Shown piece by piece: positions 1-14,964 of a DNA stretch of 64,000 nt. The notes under the pieces were generated by a model. That model made no database searches. It worked only from the letters and a program-made list of their open reading frames with translations, and was not told the DNA's origin. The stretch's first letter is position 1, and every line of letters starts with the position of its first letter. The stretch is from Candidatus Syntrophopropionicum ammoniitolerans (lineage in GTDB: Bacteria > Bacillota > Desulfotomaculia > Desulfotomaculales > Pelotomaculaceae), in contig JABMJD010000008.1 in the NCBI GenBank assembly GCA_013201395.1, positions 1-64,000 on the forward strand. Reading direction: 5' to 3'. The position numbers and the translations under genes are program-made.

Positions 1-54
1 CGCACGCTGGGATCTGTACGGGGGGTGCCGGGTAACCGGTATTCCTACCGTGAC
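1..54 (+). ncRNA. 3' end of a group II intron (domain V 3' strand and domain VI)
   Basis: The first bases read like the end of a bacterial group II intron: the 3' half of the domain V hairpin (CGCACGCTGGGATC), a TGTACGGGGGG linker, then a small domain VI hairpin (TGCCGGGTAACCGGTA) ending in the usual CTACC-type tail with the branch-point A. The catalytic core and any reverse transcriptase would lie upstream of the window. The 3' boundary near 54 is supported by a second copy of the downstream exon-like sequence at 5438 that is not preceded by intron sequence. Only the 3' end is visible, so the intron subclass cannot be fixed. Confidence 0.65.
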
Positions 55-82
55 TGTTGTGTTGTAATAGAGAACGGCAACA
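55..82 (+). repeat. Exon-side repeat next to the group II intron end
   Basis: TGTTGTGTTGTAATAGAGAA and the following GGCAAC recur with few changes at 5438-5465. This segment directly abuts the intron end, so it is the probable 3' exon of the insertion site. The second occurrence looks like an unoccupied version of the same dispersed repeat. Confidence 0.6.
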
Positions 83-240
83 AGCCTGAGGACGGTGTTG
101 AACGTGAATTAGCAGGCTGAATGAAGTCCATTACCGGTAAAAACAAGAAAAAGGGAGCTGTTTTACACCATGTTATCTATGGGTGAGAAAGCGCACCTAT
201 TAGTATCCACCATGTGCTCCAGTGTGGAGAAAAAATGAAA

Positions 241-457
241 GCCATTTTCCCCAAGGGCAGGCAAGGGTTAGGTTCTGGGAACGGCGAAGCACGAAGACAC
301 CTGGACACCTCCCCCCGCCCCGACCACCAAATAATGAAGTCAACTAAGCCCTTCGGGTAGCCAAAACTAAACTACCCGAAGGGCCCAGCTCCTGCCACAA
401 GCCGTAATCCCGGCAGGTGAGATTATATTCTCGGCACCAGTTAAAGCTGGTGGGCCG
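241..457 (+). repeat. Repeat A, copy 1, with a perfect 13-bp hairpin
   Basis: About 215 bp that recur in diverged form at 4161-4380, in the same orientation and order relative to repeat B. The core is a hairpin at 348-384: GCCCTTCGGGTAG, a short A-rich loop, then CTACCCGAAGGGC, followed by a conserved AGCTCCTGCCACAA segment. Copy 2 keeps the stem although both arms have changed, which suggests selection on structure. No known riboswitch or RNA family was recognised. The 60-codon ORF at 367-549 on the minus strand lies over this hairpin and is not supported as a gene. From 55 to 670 I see no convincing protein gene. Confidence 0.6.
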
Positions 458-670
458 GGAGAGCATAGGCCAACAATAGGGTATATTGCAACTACTCCGT
501 TAGTTATCAGCATAAAAAAGAGCCGGGGAATTTTTCCCCGGCTCCTCACTATCTGATAAAAATGAATCAGGTGAAGATGGTTCTTGATTTAAATCAGTCT
601 ATCAGGTGCGTGATGATTATGGGTAAGTATGGAAAATGGGTTCGGGGGTAGTATTTAGATAAAGGGTGTC

Positions 671-1762
671 TTAATCTGAATTTATCATTTCCTTTTGTTT
701 AGAATATATCGCGAAGTAACTCCGATCATAACCCGCGTTCAACAGGTGCCTGTGTATTTCATAGGGCTTTTGGTTATTGATGATGCCATATTCTACAATT
801 TTTAATTCATGATTGGACCAATATTTTTTTGGTTGAGCAGGAACTAAATTGACATTATGCTTTCTTGACAATTCCTTTACATGCCTGTTTAAATCGTATT
901 TTTTCCAAAAGGATACAGCATTTACCTGGGATAAGTAAGGTTTAATCATTCGGCTAACTAATTTAATCTGTTTCATTCCTAATATTGTTAGTCTTAAACC
1001 GTATTCACTTGGTAATGAGGTGGTGGATAGTTGCAACCCGGTAGTTTCCTCTATAATTTGTTTTAAATTGCAGCAGGATTCCTCGGAAAATCCCTGACTA
1101 TAGATAATATACGTAAAATTTACTGTTTTCCCCCTGGTAAACGCCGCTAATGTCCCATCGTCACCGATAAGTATGGCCAGAGCTAACCAGGGGTTGCTCG
1201 CAAAGGTCTCCCGGCACTTTTGTTTAATAATGGAACCTATGTGTTTTTCTCGTTTTTTCCGTGGATCGCCATCTTTATGCCTTGCACTTGCTTTTTTATA
1301 AAAATGACCTTCCAATTCAGAAAAAAAAGGTTTGGATTGGGAAACCATTGAGCAGGTGCTGTCCTTGTATTGTCGAATTTTAAAATATGGTTCAGGAGGC
1401 AGAAAGGTAGCCTTGAATTTTAACCAATCATATTGTTGCATACTGTGATGGTCACGAAATACAGCATATCCTCTTTTAACGGGGCTTAACTCGCCGTCCC
1501 CCAAGATGCTGGCCAGTAAAATAATTTTCGCTTGCGGATAACCGGATAGGGTTATTATGAAATTATGGTGCCTGGCGTTATAATATGCTTGTAAACCTGC
1601 CCTGGTCTTTTCCCATCCTTGTTTTAACCCTTGAGGGGATTTTTTTATTTTGAGCCGGCGGTTAATATCCGCTAATTGATCGTAGCTGACAAATAAACCA
1701 AATTCATCGGTCAGTATATTTATTGACTGTTGGTTGGTAAACTGTTTGGCTTGATAATCTGC
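671..1762 (-). CDS. LAGLIDADG homing endonuclease-like protein, start unclear, possibly frameshifted
   Basis: Two LAGLIDADG motifs are visible: LLASILGDGEL (spanning the TTG that the ORF track uses as a start) and LALAILIGDDGTL about 110 residues later, followed by a QGFSEE segment and an IKPYL helix typical of LAGLIDADG_2 endonucleases. The reading frame is open upstream to about 1762, about 85 residues beyond the ORF track, and that extension reads as ordinary protein, so the TTG at 1504 cannot be the start. No ATG, GTG or TTG occurs in the extension. An overlapping frame from an ATG at 1878 runs to about 1720, so a single frameshift there could restore a start. The gene lies between repeat A and repeat B, and is absent from the second repeat copy. 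It is transcribed divergently from the Rpn gene. The function as a DNA endonuclease is inferred from the motifs; the gene may be inactive. Confidence 0.7.
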   Translation of the reverse strand, partial: ADYQAKQFTNQQSINILTDEFGLFVSYDQLADINRRLKIKKSPQGLKQGWEKTRAGLQAYYNARHHNFIITLSGYPQAKIILLASILGDGELSPVKRGYAVFRDHHSMQQYDWLKFKATFLPPEPYFKIRQYKDSTCSMVSQSKPFFSELEGHFYKKASARHKDGDPRKKREKHIGSIIKQKCRETFASNPWLALAILIGDDGTLAAFTRGKTVNFTYIIYSQGFSEESCCNLKQIIEETTGLQLSTTSLPSEYGLRLTILGMKQIKLVSRMIKPYLSQVNAVSFWKKYDLNRHVKELSRKHNVNLVPAQPKKYWSNHELKIVEYGIINNQKPYEIHRHLLNAGYDRSYFAIYSKQKEMINSD

Positions 1763-1899
1763 TTAACATAGTGGCGGCTAATAGCAATTTCATTCCCTAC
1801 AATGGTGTTGTTTTTGTTATTCCTGGCCGGACTGGGGAGTCGGCTTGTTTTCCTAATTTCTGTATCCCCCGTCACCATTTTTTGATATAATTAGTCCAC
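1761..1899 (+). repeat. Repeat B, copy 1 (intergenic region upstream of rpn)
   Basis: About 140 bp between the divergent LAGLIDADG and Rpn genes, ending in TTGATATAATTAGTCCA. The same sequence recurs at 4423-4562 with scattered substitutions and a one-base indel. It carries a TATAAT-like element close to the Rpn start and probably contains its promoter, although no good -35 box was identified. Confidence 0.75.
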
Positions 1900-1916
1900 A
1901 AAGGGGGTTGGTGCCT

Positions 1917-2831
1917 TTGGGTGAATATGATCCAGTTATAAAGATTCTTGTTGAACGATACATAGACCAGATTGCTTCCTTTATCAGGGGCAGGCAGTTA
2001 TCTATAGAACAGATAGAAGACAAAGACAAAGAGGCTGTGGCCGTGAGGCGCACCTCCGACGTACTGGTCAAGGTATGTGAAGACGGCTATGAATACCTAA
2101 TGCTGGTTGAGTTTCAGACCAGGCCGGACAGAAAGATGGGCCGGCGGCTTTTGGAATACACGGTCATGCATCACCGGCGGCATGGAAAACCAGTTTACCC
2201 GGTAGTCATTAACCTTACAGGTGGCAGCCGGCAGGATGAACAATATATAATGGAATGCATTGATCTGACAGTGGTGGATTTTAACTACCGCCAGATCAAC
2301 CTGCGGGACATAGCCGGCAGGAATCTGCTTTACCGGGGACCGGTAGGACTGCTGCCCCTGGTGCCGCTGATGCGGCAGGAGGAACCACCGGAGGCGGTGC
2401 TTGAGAAATGTGCGGCACGTATCGGGCAAGAGGTTGAGGTAGAAAAAGATAGGGATGTCCTGTATGTTGCCCTCGCGGCGTTATCATCTTTAAAGCTTCA
2501 TAAGGATTTGATTCTAAAAATTCTGGAGGTGAGCAAATTGGAAAACTTACCGTTATTTGACGGCATCCGAGAAGAATGGGAAGCCCGAGGAGAGGCCAGA
2601 GGAGAAGCCAGAGGAGAAGCCAGAGGAGAGGCCAGGGGAAGGGTTGAAGGGCAGCTGGAAACACTTTTGGATCTACTGGAAGCTAAATTTGGAAAGGTGC
2701 CTCACGGGCTAAAAGAACATTTAAAATCTTTAAAGGACAGAGAACAGATTAGAAAGGCTACTCATAAGGTCATAAGCGCGGAAACAATTGATGAATATAT
2801 GGTGGAAATTCAGGTTAAGGATGGTTCTTGA
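1917..2831 (+). CDS. Rpn family recombination-promoting nuclease / putative transposase (PD-(D/E)XK)
   Basis: A protein of about 304 residues of the Rpn (YhgA-like, PD-(D/E)XK transposase) family, DNA nucleases linked to RecA-independent recombination. The nuclease core is seen as RRTSDVLVKV followed by YLMLVEFQTRPD, giving the Asp and Glu-x-Gln pair, and then a HHRRHGKPVYPVVI strand. The C-terminal third holds four to five EARG units encoded by 12-bp tandem repeats, then a leucine-rich helical tail, the usual layout for this family. TTG at 1917 is the preferred start because it sits about 9 nt after AAGGGGG and gives the MGEYDP N-terminus; TTG 1908 and GTG 1911 are too close to the ribosome binding site. 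A 5'- and 3'-truncated second copy lies at 4562-4912, and a C-terminal remnant lies at 46398-46612. Confidence 0.85.
   Translation: MGEYDPVIKILVERYIDQIASFIRGRQLSIEQIEDKDKEAVAVRRTSDVLVKVCEDGYEYLMLVEFQTRPDRKMGRRLLEYTVMHHRRHGKPVYPVVINLTGGSRQDEQYIMECIDLTVVDFNYRQINLRDIAGRNLLYRGPVGLLPLVPLMRQEEPPEAVLEKCAARIGQEVEVEKDRDVLYVALAALSSLKLHKDLILKILEVSKLENLPLFDGIREEWEARGEARGEARGEARGEARGRVEGQLETLLDLLEAKFGKVPHGLKEHLKSLKDREQIRKATHKVISAETIDEYMVEIQVKDGS
2580..2640 (+). repeat. 12-bp tandem repeat encoding EARG units
   Basis: About five copies of a GAGAAGCCAGAG-like 12-mer encode consecutive E-A-R-G tetrapeptides inside the Rpn gene. Such arrays are prone to in-frame length change. A shorter, decayed version (E-E-A-R units) occurs at about 46412-46450. 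Confidence 0.85.
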
Positions 2832-2840
2832 ACAGAACAC

Positions 2841-2906
2841 TTGAATTAGCCGACCGGATGTGGGGTAATGCTGGCAAAAACCAGGGGCTGTGGCAGCGAC
2901 ATTTCC
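2841..2906 (+). repeat. Repeat C, copy 1
   Basis: CTTGAATTAGCCGACCGGAT and the following 45 bases recur at 6049-6110 (CTTGAATTAGCCGGCTGGAT...), both ending in CATTTCCA. The start of the 2890 ORF lies inside this repeat. Function unknown. Confidence 0.6.
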
Positions 2907-3225
2907 ACCCGGGAATATATGCGGTGCATGTTATGATACCTTGTCCTATGGAGATAAGAATGACTGTCGAATAATTAAAAGCTGTATAGAAGATGCAAAT
3001 AGTTGTGCTTTCTTTCTGACAACCAATAAAAGAGATTTTATATATAATAGCAAAAAGAGGGGATTAAAACGGTTTACACAAGAGGCGTTTAGGGTAAACT
3101 TATTTATTGGTGAACTAACAGAAGATTGTCTTGATGAAATCCAAAGGGCTATAAAGGAGGCACCCTGCTTGGATTCTACCCGAGAGCCTGTACAATACGT
3201 TGACTATGGCTGGTCAACGAGGTAG
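2890..3225 (+). pseudogene. Hypothetical ORF, possible PIN-like remnant truncated by repeat C
   Basis: An open frame of 111 codons whose first residues are read from repeat C and therefore are probably not native. From about residue 14 on it looks like real protein: CRIIKSCIEDANSCAFFLTTNKRDF resembles the C-terminal half of a PIN-domain RNase, where a TTNxxDF segment follows the last acidic helix. No ATG is available at a plausible native start. It overlaps the end of the convergent PIN gene by about 20 bp. It may be the 3' part of a lost toxin gene; this is a tentative reading. Confidence 0.35.
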
Positions 3226-3608
3226 GGATTAATAACAGCGAGCCCCTCAATATATTTGAAATGTTTCGTGTTCAGTGTAAATAGAACAGCTTCGTTAGTT
3301 GAAGCCGTTGCTGCGATTATTGCGTCCATGGGCTCTAACCCGTGTGAAGCGCGATATCTTGCCAGGTACCTTCCAGCAACAGTAGCTATTCGTTCGTCCA
3401 CAGGAACATGTTCAAACATTTCAATCAGCGTCTTTATTATTTTAAAGCGTTTTTCTGTCATTCTCGGCGCTGCCATTAGTTCCAGTATGGTGATTGTTGA
3501 TATTAAGCCCTCGAAACTGCCGTTTTCGACCTCTTCTAATAAACTGGTTGCCTGGGGTATATTGCGTAGGTGGTCAATGATTACATTGGTATCGCTAACA
3601 ATTTTCAA
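3204..3608 (-). CDS. PIN-domain toxin (VapC family RNase)
   Basis: A protein of 134 residues of normal VapC length. The PIN acidic residues are visible: Asp in SDTNVIIDHL near the N-terminus, Glu in ITILELMAAP, Asp in LEPMDAIIAATA, and the closing LFTLNTKHF segment. VapC toxins are Mg-dependent RNases acting on tRNA or rRNA in the cytoplasm. The gene overlaps the end of the upstream AbrB-type gene by 14 bp, the standard coupling of a toxin to its antitoxin. All expected residues are present, so the toxin looks intact. Confidence 0.88.
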   Translation of the reverse strand: MKIVSDTNVIIDHLRNIPQATSLLEEVENGSFEGLISTITILELMAAPRMTEKRFKIIKTLIEMFEHVPVDERIATVAGRYLARYRASHGLEPMDAIIAATASTNEAVLFTLNTKHFKYIEGLAVINPYLVDQP

Positions 3609-3867
3609 ATCTGTCTAGCCTCCTGCCGGAACCTTTGCGAATACCTTTTATGTATTCCAACCCGTCTATTTCCATATCCGACAGCAAACCTGCTGTTTGA
3701 GCCACCACACCCTTTTTGGCCCTATCCCGCCGGGTGAGCTTAAACACCAACCTGTTGCCGCCCTCAATGTCTGCTGAAAGAATATCCCCTTCCTTGATGT
3801 TTAATCTTTTTCTAATTTCGGGGGGAATTACCACCTGCCCCCTGGACAAAACAACAGTTTTATACAT
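3595..3867 (-). CDS. AbrB/SpoVT-type antitoxin (VapB-like)
   Basis: A 90-residue protein. The N-terminal half is a swapped-hairpin AbrB domain: VVLSRGQVVIPPEIRKRLNIKEGD is close to the family signature (xxGQVxIPxxIRxxLxIxxGD). The C-terminal half, rich in charged residues, is expected to bind the PIN toxin encoded immediately downstream with overlap. Such antitoxins bind their own promoter; the promoter would lie just upstream of 3867, where AT-rich sequence is seen but no clear operator. Confidence 0.88.
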   Translation of the reverse strand: MYKTVVLSRGQVVIPPEIRKRLNIKEGDILSADIEGGNRLVFKLTRRDRAKKGVVAQTAGLLSDMEIDGLEYIKGIRKGSGRRLDRFENC

Positions 3868-4160
3868 TCTTACTTACCTTCCTTGTGTATCCTGTTTTAT
3901 TTACTATATCACTAAAACATCCCAATTTACCAGTAGTTTAGCATCTAGCAAAAAACCTTGCTTTTTTAGCTTTAATAAATTTTCTGTATTGGCTAAGGTT
4001 TGATGGTGGCTGGGCTTGGGAGCAGGTTTTATCCCATCTACCGGGACAATCATCATCTAATTAGCAAGCCCAGGTGGCTTTAAGTATCATAGGACTGCCT
4101 CTTTGGGGGGGAACGCCGGTGCTTGTGAGGAATGTGGCCAGGTCATTGTACACTACAACA

Positions 4161-4380
4161 CATTATTTCCCCAGGATAGGATAGGGTTGGGCTTTTGGGA
4201 ACAGCAAAGCAAGGAGATACCTCCTACACCGCCACCCACCAGATGATGATCCAATGAAGCCCCTTGGGTAGCCAAAACTACCCGAAGGGGCTAGCTCCTG
4301 CCACAAACAGTAATCCCAGCAGAACGGGGTTATAGCCTAGGTGCCAGTATGGGCCTGCTAGAGAGGCGGCAAAACAATCT
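4161..4380 (+). repeat. Repeat A, copy 2, with conserved hairpin
   Basis: A diverged second copy of 241-457. The hairpin at 4259-4291 has arms GCCCCTTGGGTAG and CTACCCGAAGGGGC: one extra C:G pair was added on both sides relative to copy 1, and one base was lost from the 5' arm. The conserved AGCTCCTGCCACAAAC segment follows. The stretch 3868-4560 contains no supported gene; before repeat A' it is simple AT-rich sequence. Confidence 0.6.
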
Positions 4381-4422
4381 GCGGGCAATACAGGGAAGCC
4401 TTATGGCTGCAGAAAATGATTT

Positions 4423-4562
4423 GCTTAACATAGTGGCGGCTAATAGCAATTTCATCCCCTACAAAGGCGTTGTTTTTGTTATTCCCGGCCAGGCTGAGGG
4501 AGCCGGCTTATTTCCCTAATTTCTGTATCCCTTTTTACCAATTTTTGATATAATTAGTCCAC
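4423..4562 (+). repeat. Repeat B, copy 2
   Basis: A copy of 1761-1899. In copy 2 it follows repeat A' after only about 43 bp, instead of the 1.3 kb that holds the LAGLIDADG ORF in copy 1. It joins Rpn coding sequence directly: about 100 bp containing the Rpn start region is missing. Confidence 0.75.
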
Positions 4563-4912
4563 TATCCATAGAACAAATAGAGGATAAAGACAAAGAGGCT
4601 GTGGCCGTAAGGCGCACCTCCGATGTACTGGTCAAGGTGCATGAGGACGGCTATGAATACTTGATGCTGGTTGAATTCCAGACCAGGCCGGACAGAAAGA
4701 TGGGCCGGCGGCTTTTGGAGTACACGGCCATGCATCACTGCCGGCATGGAAAACCAGTTTACCCGGTAGTCATTAACCTTACCGGTGGCAGCCGGCAGGA
4801 TGAACAATATATAATGGAATGCATTGACCTGACAGTGGTGGATTTCAACTACCGCCAGATCAACCTGCGGGACATAGCAGGCAGGGACCTGCTTTACCGG
4901 GGGCCGGTGGCA
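4562..4912 (+). pseudogene. Truncated second copy of the Rpn nuclease gene
   Basis: The frame reads LSIEQIEDKDKEAVAVRRTS and continues nearly identically to residues about 28-144 of the intact Rpn protein, up to LLYRGPV. The 5' end is missing because of a deletion at the B'/Rpn junction. At the 3' end the sequence jumps into an unrelated PIN gene read on the other strand. The nuclease core is kept, but no start and no C-terminal EARG region remain, so it is a pseudogene. Confidence 0.85.
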
Positions 4913-5038
4913 AAGTTCAACATAAACCTGTTTAGGTAATACTATTTTTCCTGGAAACAGCTCAAATAAAATATCCTCTTTATTCACCCACAAAAAAGCA
5001 GACAGGCAATCTGCATCAAAAAATAGTTTACTAGTCAT
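4913..5038 (-). pseudogene. N-terminal fragment of a PIN-domain protein
   Basis: About 42 residues starting MTSKLFFDADCLSAFLW and continuing with IVLPKQVYVEL: a PIN first strand with its Asp, then the usual IVLP(K)xVxxEL segment containing the second acidic residue. The sequence then breaks at the junction with the truncated Rpn copy. Its ATG overlaps the stop of the upstream gene (ATATGACTAG), as in a toxin/antitoxin pair. The ORF track joins it to antisense Rpn sequence, which is an artefact. Confidence 0.7.
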
Positions 5039-5425
5039 ATCTTTCTTTCTCTTCTGTATCAAGACCGTAAACAATATCGGCTCTAAAGCCATTTAATAAT
5101 AGTTCTTCATATTTACCAGTTGATACAAGTTCCCTGGCCTTTAATTCCTCAGCTAATCTAATATATTTGCCAAAGGTAGCATATTGCTTATCCTCTCGTG
5201 TGGGTGTGTATAGCGTATCATCATAGCCAAGCTTCCTTGCTGAAACTATTATGTCTGTTTTCATAGTATCAGCTTTCTCAGATTTTAAATAGCCATCATT
5301 TAACAATCTCCACAGCACAGCCTGCCTACTCATGCCAAAATGCTGTTCTATTCTTACAACATCCTCTATTTCAAGTTTTTGTTTTTCTTTTCCAAATTGT
5401 TTTCTTATAAAATAGGAGGCAACAC
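5031..5425 (-). pseudogene. C-terminal fragment of a regulator/protease-like antitoxin partner
   Basis: About 130 residues with a helix-turn-helix-like segment, VRIEQHFGMSRQAVLWRLLNDGYL, of the kind found at the C-terminus of XRE/ImmA-IrrE family proteins, which often precede a PIN gene. The native sequence appears to start near ASYFIRKQFGKEKQ; everything before it in the ORF is translated from the repeat at 5438-5465. The N-terminal DNA-binding or peptidase part is therefore lost. It overlaps the following PIN fragment by a few bases. Confidence 0.55.
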
Positions 5426-5437
5426 AGAGGGACGGTC

Positions 5438-5465
5438 CTGTTGTGTTGCAATAGGGAATGGCAAT
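5438..5465 (+). repeat. Unoccupied copy of the intron-flanking repeat
   Basis: TGTTGTGTTGCAATAGGGAA with GGCAAT matches 55-82, but here it is preceded by ACAGAGGGACGGTCC rather than by group II intron sequence. It interrupts the regulator gene fragment read on the minus strand. The GGGACGGTCC motif resembles dispersed repeats common in Clostridia. Confidence 0.6.
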
Positions 5466-5548
5466 ACGGGGATCTACTATGATTGAAACCACTCATCCGG
5501 AAGGGAGTGAGACAGGGATGACCTTGGTACAGGCGTTCTCTGCCTGGA

Positions 5549-6048: not shown

Positions 6049-6110
6049 CTTGAATTAGCCGGCTGGATGTGGGATAATTTTGGCAAAGGCGTTGAAAAAA
6101 CATTTCCAAG
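6049..6110 (+). repeat. Repeat C, copy 2
   Basis: Matches 2841-2906 (CTTGAATTAGCCGGCTGGAT, then GGCAAAGG and CATTTCCA). It sits immediately upstream of the 82-residue ORF at 6114. The preceding stretch 5828-6048 contains no supported gene. Confidence 0.55.
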
Positions 6111-11611: not shown

Positions 11612-13144
11612 TTGACTCCGGCTAACTTACTTGCCAGGTTAAGGGAAAGATGGGAGTCTTTAAACCAAAGTCGGAAAGTTGTTTCTGTTTTAGTTGTCTT
11701 GGGGGTTGTAATTAGTGTTGTTTGCCTGGGGCGAATAGCAATGCAGCCTGCCTATGCTCCGCTATTTACAGGGCTGGAATCCAAAGAGGCGGGAATGATT
11801 GCAGAAAATTTAAAAACCATGAAGGTTCCCTACCAGATAACAGATCAGGGCAAAACTATAATGGTACCGGAACGACAGGTTTATGAGGTGCGGAACCAAT
11901 TGGCCGGTAGCGGTGCCCTGAGCAGCAGCATAATTGGTTTTGAACTCTTTGATCAGAGTAAGTTTGGTCAAACAGATTTTGAACAGCAGGTGGGTTACCA
12001 GCGTGCCCTACAGGGTGAATTGAGTAGGACGGTGGTTCAGCTGGATGGTGTGGAACAGGCCTGGGTACACCTGGTATTGCCTGAAAAAAGTGTTTTTCTC
12101 AGTGAGCAGGGTACGCCTTCGGCGTCAGTAGCCTTAAAGCTTGAGTCCGGAGCGCTCCTAAAACCGGAACAGATCCAGGGTATTTGTGATCTTTTTGTGG
12201 GTAGCGTGGCGGGACTCGAGCCCGATAACGTCCACATTATAGACACTGAAGGCAATATATTAAGTGATAACTTAGAGCCAAGTGACCCGGGAGCCGTCAT
12301 CACGAGGATGGCTCTTGAACAAATGGCTGCCAAAAGGGAATATGAAAAAGAACTGGAAAAAAGAGTGCAGCAAATGCTGGCCCAGATTATCGGGCTGAAT
12401 AATGCCGTGGCTATGGTAACAGCAGATCTGGATTTTGATCAAAAACATACCAACAGTTCCATTGCTTCCAACCCGGATGAATTGAAAGTAAGTGAATATA
12501 GTGTTGCTGAAAGTGGCACGGGTACCGATGGTGGTGGGGTAGTGGGCACGGATTCTAACGTGACAACAACCCCCTTTGTTCGGGACCCGGGTTCTTCAAG
12601 TTATACCAAAGAGGAACATACAGTCAACTATCAGGTTAGCACACTGGAGGAATCAGTGGTAAATGCCCCCGGTAGTGTCAAGCGTTTATCTGCTTCTGTG
12701 GTCATAAATGAAACGGCTGTTCCATTGGGCGTGCATGATATCCAGACAGTTGTGGGGGCCGCTATTGGTTACAATCAAGACAGAGGGGATCAAATCCATG
12801 TAACTAGTATGGCCTTTGAGGATTCCTATCTTAAAAAGGTTGAAGCCGAAATGGCCATGCTTGATGAGCTGGCACAAAAAGAACTGTGGTATAAATATGC
12901 CCTTGCAGGGGGGGCCCTATTGTTTGTCCTCCTGGCCACACTTACGGCATTACTGCTGTGGAGGCGTAGGGGTGTTGGTTTAGATGTTGGTGAGGAGCTT
13001 GTGGGAGTATTTCCTATTGAGGATATAGAGGAACGTGAACCGGAACAAATAGTCAAAAAGGATAAACAGCAACAAATTATAGATATGTATCAGAAATCAC
13101 CTGATAAAATAGCAGAAATTATAAAGGTGTGGATGAAGGAATAG
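11612..13144 (+). CDS. fliF: Flagellar MS-ring protein FliF
   Basis: A 510-residue membrane protein. The first transmembrane segment (about 25-43, VVSVLVVLGVVISVVCLGR) is followed by the periplasmic ring-building YscJ-like domain (APLFTGLESKEAGMIAENL, ALQGELSRTV). The second transmembrane helix lies near residue 430 (YALAGGALLFVLLATLTALLLW), and a short cytosolic tail binds FliG (DKIAEIIKVWMKE). TTG start behind TTTGGGGTGG. Confidence 0.96.
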   Translation: MTPANLLARLRERWESLNQSRKVVSVLVVLGVVISVVCLGRIAMQPAYAPLFTGLESKEAGMIAENLKTMKVPYQITDQGKTIMVPERQVYEVRNQLAGSGALSSSIIGFELFDQSKFGQTDFEQQVGYQRALQGELSRTVVQLDGVEQAWVHLVLPEKSVFLSEQGTPSASVALKLESGALLKPEQIQGICDLFVGSVAGLEPDNVHIIDTEGNILSDNLEPSDPGAVITRMALEQMAAKREYEKELEKRVQQMLAQIIGLNNAVAMVTADLDFDQKHTNSSIASNPDELKVSEYSVAESGTGTDGGGVVGTDSNVTTTPFVRDPGSSSYTKEEHTVNYQVSTLEESVVNAPGSVKRLSASVVINETAVPLGVHDIQTVVGAAIGYNQDRGDQIHVTSMAFEDSYLKKVEAEMAMLDELAQKELWYKYALAGGALLFVLLATLTALLLWRRRGVGLDVGEELVGVFPIEDIEEREPEQIVKKDKQQQIIDMYQKSPDKIAEIIKVWMKE

Positions 13145-13154
13145 GGGGATGGCC

Positions 13155-14168
13155 ATGCAGTTGCCTGCGAAACTCAAAGGTATCAAAAAAGCTGCCATTT
13201 TGTTGATAGCCCTTGGTTCAGAACTGTCATCCCAGGTATTGAAAAGGGAGTTTACTGAAGTAGAAATTGAGCAGCTAACTATGGAGATATCCAAATTGAA
13301 CCATGTACCTGCTGAGACAACGATTGCTGTTCTTGACGAGTTCATAGAGCTGCAGCAGGCCAGGGAATACCTCCTGCATGGTGGGATCAGCTACGCCAGG
13401 GAACTGCTGGAAAAGGCTGTCGGCAGCCAAAGGGCTCTAGAAATATTGGATAAGCTTACCGGCAATGTTGAGTCCATTCCCTTTAGTATACTTCGGGATA
13501 CGGATCCCAAACAGCTATTAAATTTCATTAGGGATGAACATCCCCAAACTATCGCCCTGATCCTTGCTCACCTTTCGTCACAGCAGGCGGCAGCCATTCT
13601 AGAAGACTTGCCCCCGGAATTGCAGAGTGAAATATCCAGGCGAATTGCCGGCATTGACCGTTTAGCACCGGACATTGTCCAGAGGGTAGAGTCGGTGTTG
13701 GAAAGCAAACTGTTATCGGTAGGCCAGCAGGGAAGGATGGCAGTAGGTGGCGTGCAATCACTTGTGAATATTTTGAACAAGGTGGGCAGGGGTGCTGAGA
13801 AGGTGATTCTGGAAGGATTGGAGGAGGGGGATCCGGTTCTTGCCGAAAAGGTAAAGATGCGCCTGTTTATTTTTGAGGACATCAGGATCCTTTCTGATAA
13901 TGATATCCAGCGGGTGCTTAGAGAGGTTGAAACTAGGGATCTGGCCCTGGCTATGCGCGGTGCCAATGAGGAGGTGCATGGCCGGATTTATAAAAATATG
14001 TCTAGGCGTGCAGCAGATATGCTGCGAGAGGAAATAGAGATAATGGGACCGGTACGTCTCAGAGATGTGGAGCAGGCACAGCAAAAAACTGTGACAGTCA
14101 TTCGTAAACTAGATGAAGCGGGGGAAATCATTATATCCCGGGGTGGCGATGAAGATGTCATCATATAA
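13155..14168 (+). CDS. fliG: Flagellar motor switch protein FliG
   Basis: A 337-residue protein. The N-terminal FliF-binding domain begins LKGIKKAAILLIALGSELSSQVLK, the middle domain contains EHPQTIALILAHL, and the C-terminal torque domain contains the charged helix LSDNDIQRVLREVETRDLALAMRG. FliG transmits torque and switches rotation. ATG 13155 is 6 nt after TAGGGGG, better placed than ATG 13149. The gene starts 10 bp after the fliF stop. Confidence 0.96.
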   Translation: MQLPAKLKGIKKAAILLIALGSELSSQVLKREFTEVEIEQLTMEISKLNHVPAETTIAVLDEFIELQQAREYLLHGGISYARELLEKAVGSQRALEILDKLTGNVESIPFSILRDTDPKQLLNFIRDEHPQTIALILAHLSSQQAAAILEDLPPELQSEISRRIAGIDRLAPDIVQRVESVLESKLLSVGQQGRMAVGGVQSLVNILNKVGRGAEKVILEGLEEGDPVLAEKVKMRLFIFEDIRILSDNDIQRVLREVETRDLALAMRGANEEVHGRIYKNMSRRAADMLREEIEIMGPVRLRDVEQAQQKTVTVIRKLDEAGEIIISRGGDEDVII

Positions 14169-14964
14169 GATTATCAAGGCTGCCCAGGTGCAGGAAAACC
14201 CTTTTCAGGTCCTGCCCCTGAGTAACCATAAAACCCTGGAATTGCAGGAATACATAAAATGTGCGGATGACAGCACCGCCGAAGCTACACCTGATCAAGC
14301 CAGCGAGGATCAGTTGCAGGCTGAGGAAATTGTGAACCTGGCCCACACCAGGGCAGATGAAATTATTAAAATGGCTCGCCATAAAGAGCAGGAAATAATC
14401 GACAAGGCTCAGTCCCGGGGAGAACAAATTAAGCAAGAGGCCTATCAAAACGCTTTTGACAAGGGCCACAAAAAAGGCAGTGAGGCCGGCTACCAGGATG
14501 GCCTGGCCCAAGCAAATGAAGAGGCCATAGCCATCCGGCTGCAAGCCGAGGAAGTATTGGCTCAGGCTGAAAAAATTCGCCGGCAGACACTGGAAACAAT
14601 GGAGCAGGAAATTGTTGAGCTGGCCCGGGAAATAGCGGAAAAACTGGTATCCCAACAGTTGGCTTTGGCTCCTGAAATGGTGATACAGATAGCAGAAGAG
14701 TCGTTACGTCTTGTGGCCGATCGCCTCCAGGTTGTTTTATATATCAATCCCCAGGAGATGGAATTGGTTGAGTCCAGGCGTGACCATTTGGCGTCCCTTC
14801 TGCCGGAGCGGGCCCAGTTGCAGTGCATTGCCGATGGGGAAATACAGCCGGGTGGATGCTGGGTGGAAACTGAACAGGGACGGGTAGATGCCACCATGAA
14901 AACCCGCTGGGATGAGTTGGTTCGGGCCCTTTATGGCCCTGGATCTGATATAAAGACGACTTAA
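14155..14964 (+). CDS. fliH: Flagellar export ATPase regulator FliH
   Basis: A 269-residue protein with a long central coiled coil rich in Glu/Ala/Gln (AEEIVNLAHTRADEIIKMAR onwards), a GHKKGSEAGYQDGLAQA segment as in FliH/YscL, and a C-terminal V-ATPase E-like domain. FliH holds the FliI ATPase at the export gate. ATG 14155 (MSSYKIIKAAQV) is chosen because GGGGTGG lies about 7 nt upstream; it overlaps the end of fliG by 14 bp. The ORF track start at 14113 is unlikely. Confidence 0.93.
   Translation: MSSYKIIKAAQVQENPFQVLPLSNHKTLELQEYIKCADDSTAEATPDQASEDQLQAEEIVNLAHTRADEIIKMARHKEQEIIDKAQSRGEQIKQEAYQNAFDKGHKKGSEAGYQDGLAQANEEAIAIRLQAEEVLAQAEKIRRQTLETMEQEIVELAREIAEKLVSQQLALAPEMVIQIAEESLRLVADRLQVVLYINPQEMELVESRRDHLASLLPERAQLQCIADGEIQPGGCWVETEQGRVDATMKTRWDELVRALYGPGSDIKTT

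What the first reader, a model, noticed from the sequence alone, without database searches (positions are those of the whole stretch)
241..4912. Candidate mobile unit: repeat A, LAGLIDADG ORF, repeat B, Rpn nuclease, with a copy lacking the LAGLIDADG ORF
Copy 1 is A(241-457)-LAGLIDADG-B(1761-1899)-Rpn; copy 2 is A'(4161-4380)-B'(4423-4562)-partial Rpn. In copy 2 only about 43 bp separate A' from B', so the endonuclease ORF is present in one copy and absent in the other. Association of a homing-type endonuclease with an Rpn nuclease in one repeated unit is not something I can name.
Basis: partly seen in the sequence, partly recalled or inferred. Interest (0 to 1): 0.7.

Follow-up and report, generated by a model that had tools for sequence, protein, structure and literature searches.

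The report
Decayed flagellin intron and homing endonuclease
The "mobile unit" is the worn-down end of a flagellin gene that once held a self-splicing intron beside a gene for a DNA-cutting enzyme, and intact versions of this pair in other bacteria suggest that the enzyme helps both spread from one flagellin gene to another.

Summary
The repeats and ORFs are real, but A-LAGLIDADG-B-Rpn is not one element. Repeat A (to 461) is the 3' part of a decayed flagellin group I intron. It is followed by a decayed flagellin 3' exon (462-503), a terminator, and an antisense LAGLIDADG gene (671-1756) that lost its first ~100 codons where B begins. B-Rpn is an unrelated duplication: B starts inside an IS110 fragment, and no other LAGLIDADG locus examined has an Rpn gene. 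A' (4166-4346) is a second intron relic.

Relatives across Bacillota show the intact arrangement. A 340-360 bp ORF-less group I intron interrupts the end of flagellin. A LAGLIDADG gene lies outside the intron, convergent, typically 27-180 nt past the flagellin stop. In a 37-genome class, the gene or a remnant occurs in 9/12 genomes with the intron and 2/25 without (p = 8e-5). In one order, intron-bearing alleles of different genera share the 3' exon (83-96%) more than the 5' exon (77-78%). This fits "collaborative homing", described in phages: a free-standing endonuclease drives a neighbouring intron. Cleavage and splicing were not tested. Flagellin introns and LAGLIDADG genes beside flagellin were each reported before; I found no report of their pairing.

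The parts
229..461 (+). Repeat A: 3' part of a decayed group I intron of the flagellin (site 2) type; last intron base G at 461
   Evidence: Profile of 18 flagellin introns with exons hits 346-502 at E = 1.7e-11, intron alone 346-461 at 4e-5; best of 1000 dinucleotide shuffles 2.5 bits against 37.8. The limit 229 comes from a profile that included this copy, so 229-345 rests on weaker evidence.
462..503 (+). Decayed flagellin 3' exon, stop TAG at 501-503
   Evidence: Same hit runs through the intron/exon junction GGGAG|AGCATAGGCCAAC
508..563 (.). Terminator-like hairpin between the 3' exon and the endonuclease gene
   Evidence: Read directly from the sequence: AGCCGGGGAATTTTTCCCCGGCT flanked by A and T
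671..1756 (-). LAGLIDADG endonuclease gene, 5'-truncated (about 102 N-terminal residues missing); both motif aspartates kept (ILGDGEL, LIGDDGTL)
   Evidence: 50-56% identical to L006, L007, L023; predicted fold of L006 matches I-WcaI and I-SceI; profile match starts at position 103 of 466
1754..1899 (+). Repeat B: end of an IS110 transposase fragment plus the region upstream of Rpn; not part of the homing cassette
1908..2831 (+). Rpn/YhgA-like nuclease gene (TTG start); not part of the homing cassette
   Evidence: Weak PF04754 and TIGR01784 matches; no Rpn at other endonuclease loci
4166..4346 (+). Repeat A': second flagellin-type group I intron relic, without exon
   Evidence: Independent intron profile scores 12.9 bits on this region; best of 1000 shuffles 6.6
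4348..4431 (+). Internal fragment of an IS110-family transposase gene, overlapping the start of B'
   Evidence: 74% identical to the coding sequence of L010:989-2092
4416..4562 (+). Repeat B'
   Evidence: 88% identical to B
4563..4908 (+). Partial Rpn copy lacking both ends
   Evidence: 93% identical to 1999-2344

Best explanation
The window begins near a flagellin gene and holds the dead remains of a two-part homing cassette. [quoted passage not shown] Part two was a free-standing LAGLIDADG endonuclease gene on the opposite strand, just past the flagellin stop. In intact relatives the intron would be spliced from flagellin mRNA. The endonuclease would cut intron-less flagellin alleles at or near the intron insertion site, and repair from the donor would copy intron, 3' exon and endonuclease gene together (collaborative homing). 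Here the endonuclease gene lost its start where an unrelated IS110-B-Rpn segment joins it. Shown by sequence: the anatomy, its recurrence, the association of intron and gene, shared 3' exons, purifying selection, and decay. Inferred: splicing, cleavage and the cut site.
For: Intron profile hit running into the flagellin 3' exon, E = 1.7e-11 (shuffles). LAGLIDADG fold and Pfam LAGLIDADG_2 in relatives. 16 of 19 genomes with the gene or a remnant have flagellin within about 6 kb on the same contig, convergent; the exceptions are a contig without flagellin, a short scrap about 9 kb away, and the window's genome, whose flagellin ends 156 bp from a contig end. Flagellin split by a group I intron (Rfam above cut-off in 14 of 20 split loci scanned) with exon-T and intron-G boundaries. 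Endonuclease gene outside the intron, 27-180 nt past the flagellin stop in eight genomes; 168 nt in the window. Intron and gene co-occur, 9/12 against 2/25, p = 8e-5. Desulfotomaculales intron alleles share the 3' exon at 83-96% but the 5' exon at 77-78%. dN/dS 0.09-0.28. Remnants at several stages.
Against: No cleavage or splicing data. G041 and G208 have the gene but uninterrupted flagellin; G230 has the intron but no trace of the gene; G004 has the intron but only 610 bp of downstream sequence. Introns at another flagellin position (G505, G033) have no adjacent gene. Related species inflate the association. The 3' exon is only 48 nt, and over all cross-genus pairs the exon effect is small.
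Confidence: 0.7

Rival explanations
1. Intron and endonuclease gene are independent parasites that both settle at the flagellin 3' end. The endonuclease homes into its own site just past the flagellin stop, and the intron spreads by reverse splicing or ordinary recombination.
For: The gene sits past the stop, not at the intron site. Each is found without the other (G041, G208; G230). G335 and G516 differ in the intron although their downstream sequence, with the same gene remnant, is 99% identical.
Against: Association p = 8e-5 and 3' exons shared together with the intron. If the cut lies close by, repair would carry both in any case.
Confidence: 0.2
2. The LAGLIDADG protein has been domesticated as a regulator or recombination factor for flagellin, like WhiA or yeast HO, and is kept for the host.
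For: Strict location beside flagellin, constant convergent orientation, purifying selection, and extra helical parts in the full-length model.
Against: Patchy presence (5 of 113 genomes in the order) and many broken copies suggest a gain-decay-loss cycle; both motif aspartates are kept.
Confidence: 0.08
3. One reading: A-LAGLIDADG-B-Rpn as one mobile element.
For: A and B occur in the same order in both copies and only twice in the genome.
Against: The endonuclease gene is truncated at B, B begins inside an IS110 fragment, A and B differ in divergence, and no relative has Rpn near the gene.
Confidence: 0.02

Closest known systems
Collaborative homing in phages: free-standing endonucleases that target the insertion site of a neighbouring ORF-less group I intron (PMC3984707, PMC10448857)
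   Same: ORF-less group I intron in a conserved gene, endonuclease gene next door and outside the intron, co-occurrence and shared flanking exon
   Different: Bacterial chromosomes rather than phages, flagellin as host gene, LAGLIDADG endonuclease on the opposite strand; cutting at the intron site not shown
Group I introns in flagellin genes of thermophilic Bacillus/Geobacillus (Hayakawa and Ishizuka 2009, 2012, cited in PMC3984707)
   Same: Group I intron in a flagellin gene
   Different: Those papers were not available here, so insertion position and neighbouring genes could not be compared; the present introns are in other families of Bacillota
edn1/edn2 LAGLIDADG genes between flaA2 and flaG in Geobacillus (PMC5109656)
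   Same: LAGLIDADG gene next to flagellin, patchy between strains
   Different: That paper links them to glycosylation islands and does not mention introns
LAGLIDADG homing endonucleases I-SceI, I-WcaI, I-DmoI
   Same: Predicted fold with two LAGLIDADG units
   Different: The present proteins are free-standing, with extra N- and C-terminal helical parts that may bind DNA
WhiA/DUF199 (domesticated LAGLIDADG regulator)
   Same: LAGLIDADG fold joined to helical DNA-binding parts; also found by Foldseek
   Different: From general knowledge WhiA is widely conserved in Gram-positive bacteria; the present family is patchy and often broken

Membership tests
LAGLIDADG homing endonuclease | Two LAGLIDADG motif helices with acidic residues in an alpha-beta-beta-alpha-beta-beta-alpha fold | tested here: met
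   Model of L006 and Foldseek match to I-WcaI/I-SceI; Pfam LAGLIDADG_2 in relatives; both motif aspartates invariant in the near family. The window copy itself is truncated.
LAGLIDADG homing endonuclease | Site-specific DNA cleavage | not testable with these tools
   Needs biochemistry
Group I intron | Group I core recognised by the covariance model, exon ending in T and intron ending in G | tested here: met
   Relatives: RF00028 above cut-off in 14 of 20 split loci; boundaries. Window relic: sequence profile only, no Rfam hit.
Group I intron | Self-splicing | not testable with these tools
   Needs RT-PCR or in vitro splicing
[quoted passage not shown]
Collaborative homing system | Intron and gene occur and move together | tested here: inconclusive
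   Association p = 8e-5 and shared 3' exons support it; exceptions G041, G208, G230 and relatedness of the genomes limit it
Collaborative homing system | Endonuclease cuts the intron insertion site | not testable with these tools
   Needs cleavage mapping
   A-LAGLIDADG recurs as intron plus gene; B and Rpn are found only in the window's own genome among the loci examined

The most novel reading that the evidence does not exclude
A widespread chromosomal form of collaborative homing in Bacillota: antisense LAGLIDADG endonucleases beside flagellin cut the insertion site of a neighbouring ORF-less group I intron and move intron, flagellin 3' exon and endonuclease gene together between species.
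Probability: 0.5. Interest if true: 0.75.

Novelty: new variant of a known kind. Interest (0 to 1): 0.6.

Why it matters
If true, it extends a mechanism described in phages to bacterial chromosomes and gives a natural series of intact, half-lost and decayed stages in many species. It joins two separate earlier reports (introns in flagellin; LAGLIDADG genes beside flagellin) into one testable system. It also warns annotators that many flagellin genes seem to end early only because an intron carries a stop codon, and that an unexplained repeat beside flagellin can be an intron relic.

Tried and rejected
The composite unit with Rpn: rejected. A as an IS200/IS605 end, omega RNA or bridge RNA: considered from its hairpins; no Rfam support, and the flagellin-intron profile explains it. 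Phage origin of the endonuclease gene: no relative in viral contigs and no DNA match in phage records. First genome-contig scan with the window protein alone found nothing; an alignment was needed. PDB sequence search gave no relative. A group II intron at the two contig ends was not confirmed by Rfam. The short L011 match lies in a helicase gene and was judged chance. The search for an intact IS110 parent in the own genome found only a distant fragment.

Full report
Observation. A and B each occur only twice in the genome. A and A' align at about 75% with indels, B and B' at 88%, the Rpn segments at 93%. Copy 2 has lost 99 bp at the start of Rpn and is cut at 4908. The space between A' and B' contains an internal piece of an IS110 transposase gene (4348-4431), and B in copy 1 begins with the last 16 or so nt of that piece. 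Copy 2 is therefore not an empty site.

The LAGLIDADG ORF. The minus-strand frame has no start codon near its 5' end and lacks about 102 N-terminal residues compared with full-length relatives of 466 and 469 aa. Its homology stops within about 3 bp of the B boundary, so the gene was broken there. The near family has no convincing Pfam, NCBIfam or PDB sequence match. An AlphaFold model of the L006 relative (mean pLDDT 77.6) shows two LAGLIDADG units, and Foldseek returns I-WcaI and I-SceI first. More distant relatives match Pfam LAGLIDADG_2.

Where the family lives. Sequence-only searches of the order (113 genomes), the phylum (399 genomes) and one further class (37 genomes) found genes or remnants in 19 genomes. 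In 16 of them a flagellin gene lies within about 6 kb on the same contig, in convergent orientation; in G041 the gene lies between two flagellins and is convergent with the farther one. The exceptions are a 33-aa scrap about 9 kb from flagellin (G510), a contig without flagellin (G156), and the window's genome. There flagellin ends 156 bp before the end of contig C62, and the window is the start of contig C23. The two contig ends look like halves of one hairpin (...CAACACAGGGGGACGGTTC and CTGTTGTGTTG...), perhaps split by a group II intron. That adjacency is an inference; Rfam did not confirm the intron. In G506 a group II intron does lie between flagellin and the endonuclease remnant.

The intron. 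Many flagellins beside the gene end early (...AMLE..AA*), with the usual ending (AQANQxPQxVLQLLR*) about 340-360 bp further on. The intervening sequence matches the Rfam group I intron model above its cut-off in 14 of 20 split loci scanned; the rest are closely similar in sequence to these where compared. The 5' exon ends in ATGCT and the intron in G, as group I introns require. The introns are too short for an endonuclease ORF. The endonuclease gene ends 27-180 nt past the flagellin stop in eight genomes, on the other strand, outside the intron. A second intron position, about 20 codons upstream, occurs in G505, G033 and G015.

Association. In the 37-genome class, searched for the gene without reference to flagellin, 9 of 12 genomes with the site-2 intron and 2 of 25 without it have the gene or a remnant (Fisher p = 8e-5). 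A nucleotide search found further short remnants in G335 and G518 (with intron) and G516 (without). Relatedness contributes to this figure. Restricting to the two informative genera and to genes or pieces of about 100 aa or more gives 8 of 11 against 0 of 8, stratified exact p about 0.001; that is a hand calculation.

Movement. Intron-bearing alleles of three genera of the order (G004, G039, G101) are 83-92% identical in the 3' exon but 77-78% in the 5' exon. A fourth (G015) is 92-96% identical to them in the 3' exon. The two flagellins of G004, one with and one without the intron, are 73% identical in the 3' exon. This is what copying of intron and downstream DNA from a donor would give. Averaged over all cross-genus pairs the effect is small. 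The G515 intron is 98% identical to that of G506 in another genus and 83-85% to those of its own. The gene is under purifying selection (dN/dS 0.09-0.28). G335 and G516 are 99% identical downstream of flagellin but differ in the intron.

Back to the window. A profile of the flagellin introns with exons matches window 346-502 at E = 1.7e-11; the best of 1000 dinucleotide shuffles scores 2.5 bits against 37.8. The match runs through the intron's 3' end (461) into a decayed flagellin 3' exon ending TAG at 503. The endonuclease stop follows 168 nt later on the other strand, close to the 180 nt in Desulfoscipio geothermicus. A' is a second intron relic (12.9 bits against 6.6 for the best shuffle). 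The window therefore holds a decayed intron-exon-endonuclease cassette, presumably from a second flagellin gene; the intact flagellin on C62 has no intron. The B-Rpn segment is a separate duplication.

Literature. Collaborative homing is described from phages (PMC3984707; PMC10448857). Flagellin group I introns are cited for a thermophilic Bacillus (PMC3984707), and LAGLIDADG genes between flaA2 and flaG for Geobacillus (PMC5109656, which does not mention introns). Searches of the held library found no paper joining the two. That library lacks most subscription journals, so prior work may exist.

Limits. Splicing and cleavage are inferred and the cut site is unknown. Most genomes searched are anonymous, and several contigs end near the genes. 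Sampling was one genome per species.

Noticed in passing
window 1-80 and L030:8560-8655 (end of G000:C62): Contig ends look like two halves of a hairpin split by a group II intron, which would place the intact flagellin directly upstream of the window. The unsplit hairpin recurs at window 5422-5455.
   Followed up: partly
L028 (G015) 12406-14812: A flagellin gene interrupted by two group I introns (RF00028 at 12464-12776 and 12884-13204), with a 1046-aa ORF and an endonuclease remnant downstream.
   Followed up: partly
L097 (G335) and L108 (G516): Downstream of flagellin these are 99% identical over 2.2 kb, yet only G335 has the flagellin intron: a good pair for studying recent intron gain or loss.
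   Followed up: partly
L100 (G506) 1249-1823: A group II intron lies between the intron-bearing flagellin and the endonuclease remnant.
   Followed up: no
window 3204-3867: PIN-domain toxin and MazE-like antitoxin gene pair on the minus strand between the two copies.
   Followed up: no
window 4909-5492: The truncated Rpn copy runs into what looks like the start of a toxin-like gene on the minus strand, with a second reading frame upstream of it; a decayed gene neighbourhood.
   Followed up: no
window 103-141, 2840-2878, 6049-6087: Three copies of a 39-nt repeat (64-87% identical) scattered through the first 6 kb.
   Followed up: no
L039 (G319) and L040 (G208): These endonucleases lack the C-terminal helical part seen in their relatives; G208 has uninterrupted flagellin.
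   Followed up: no
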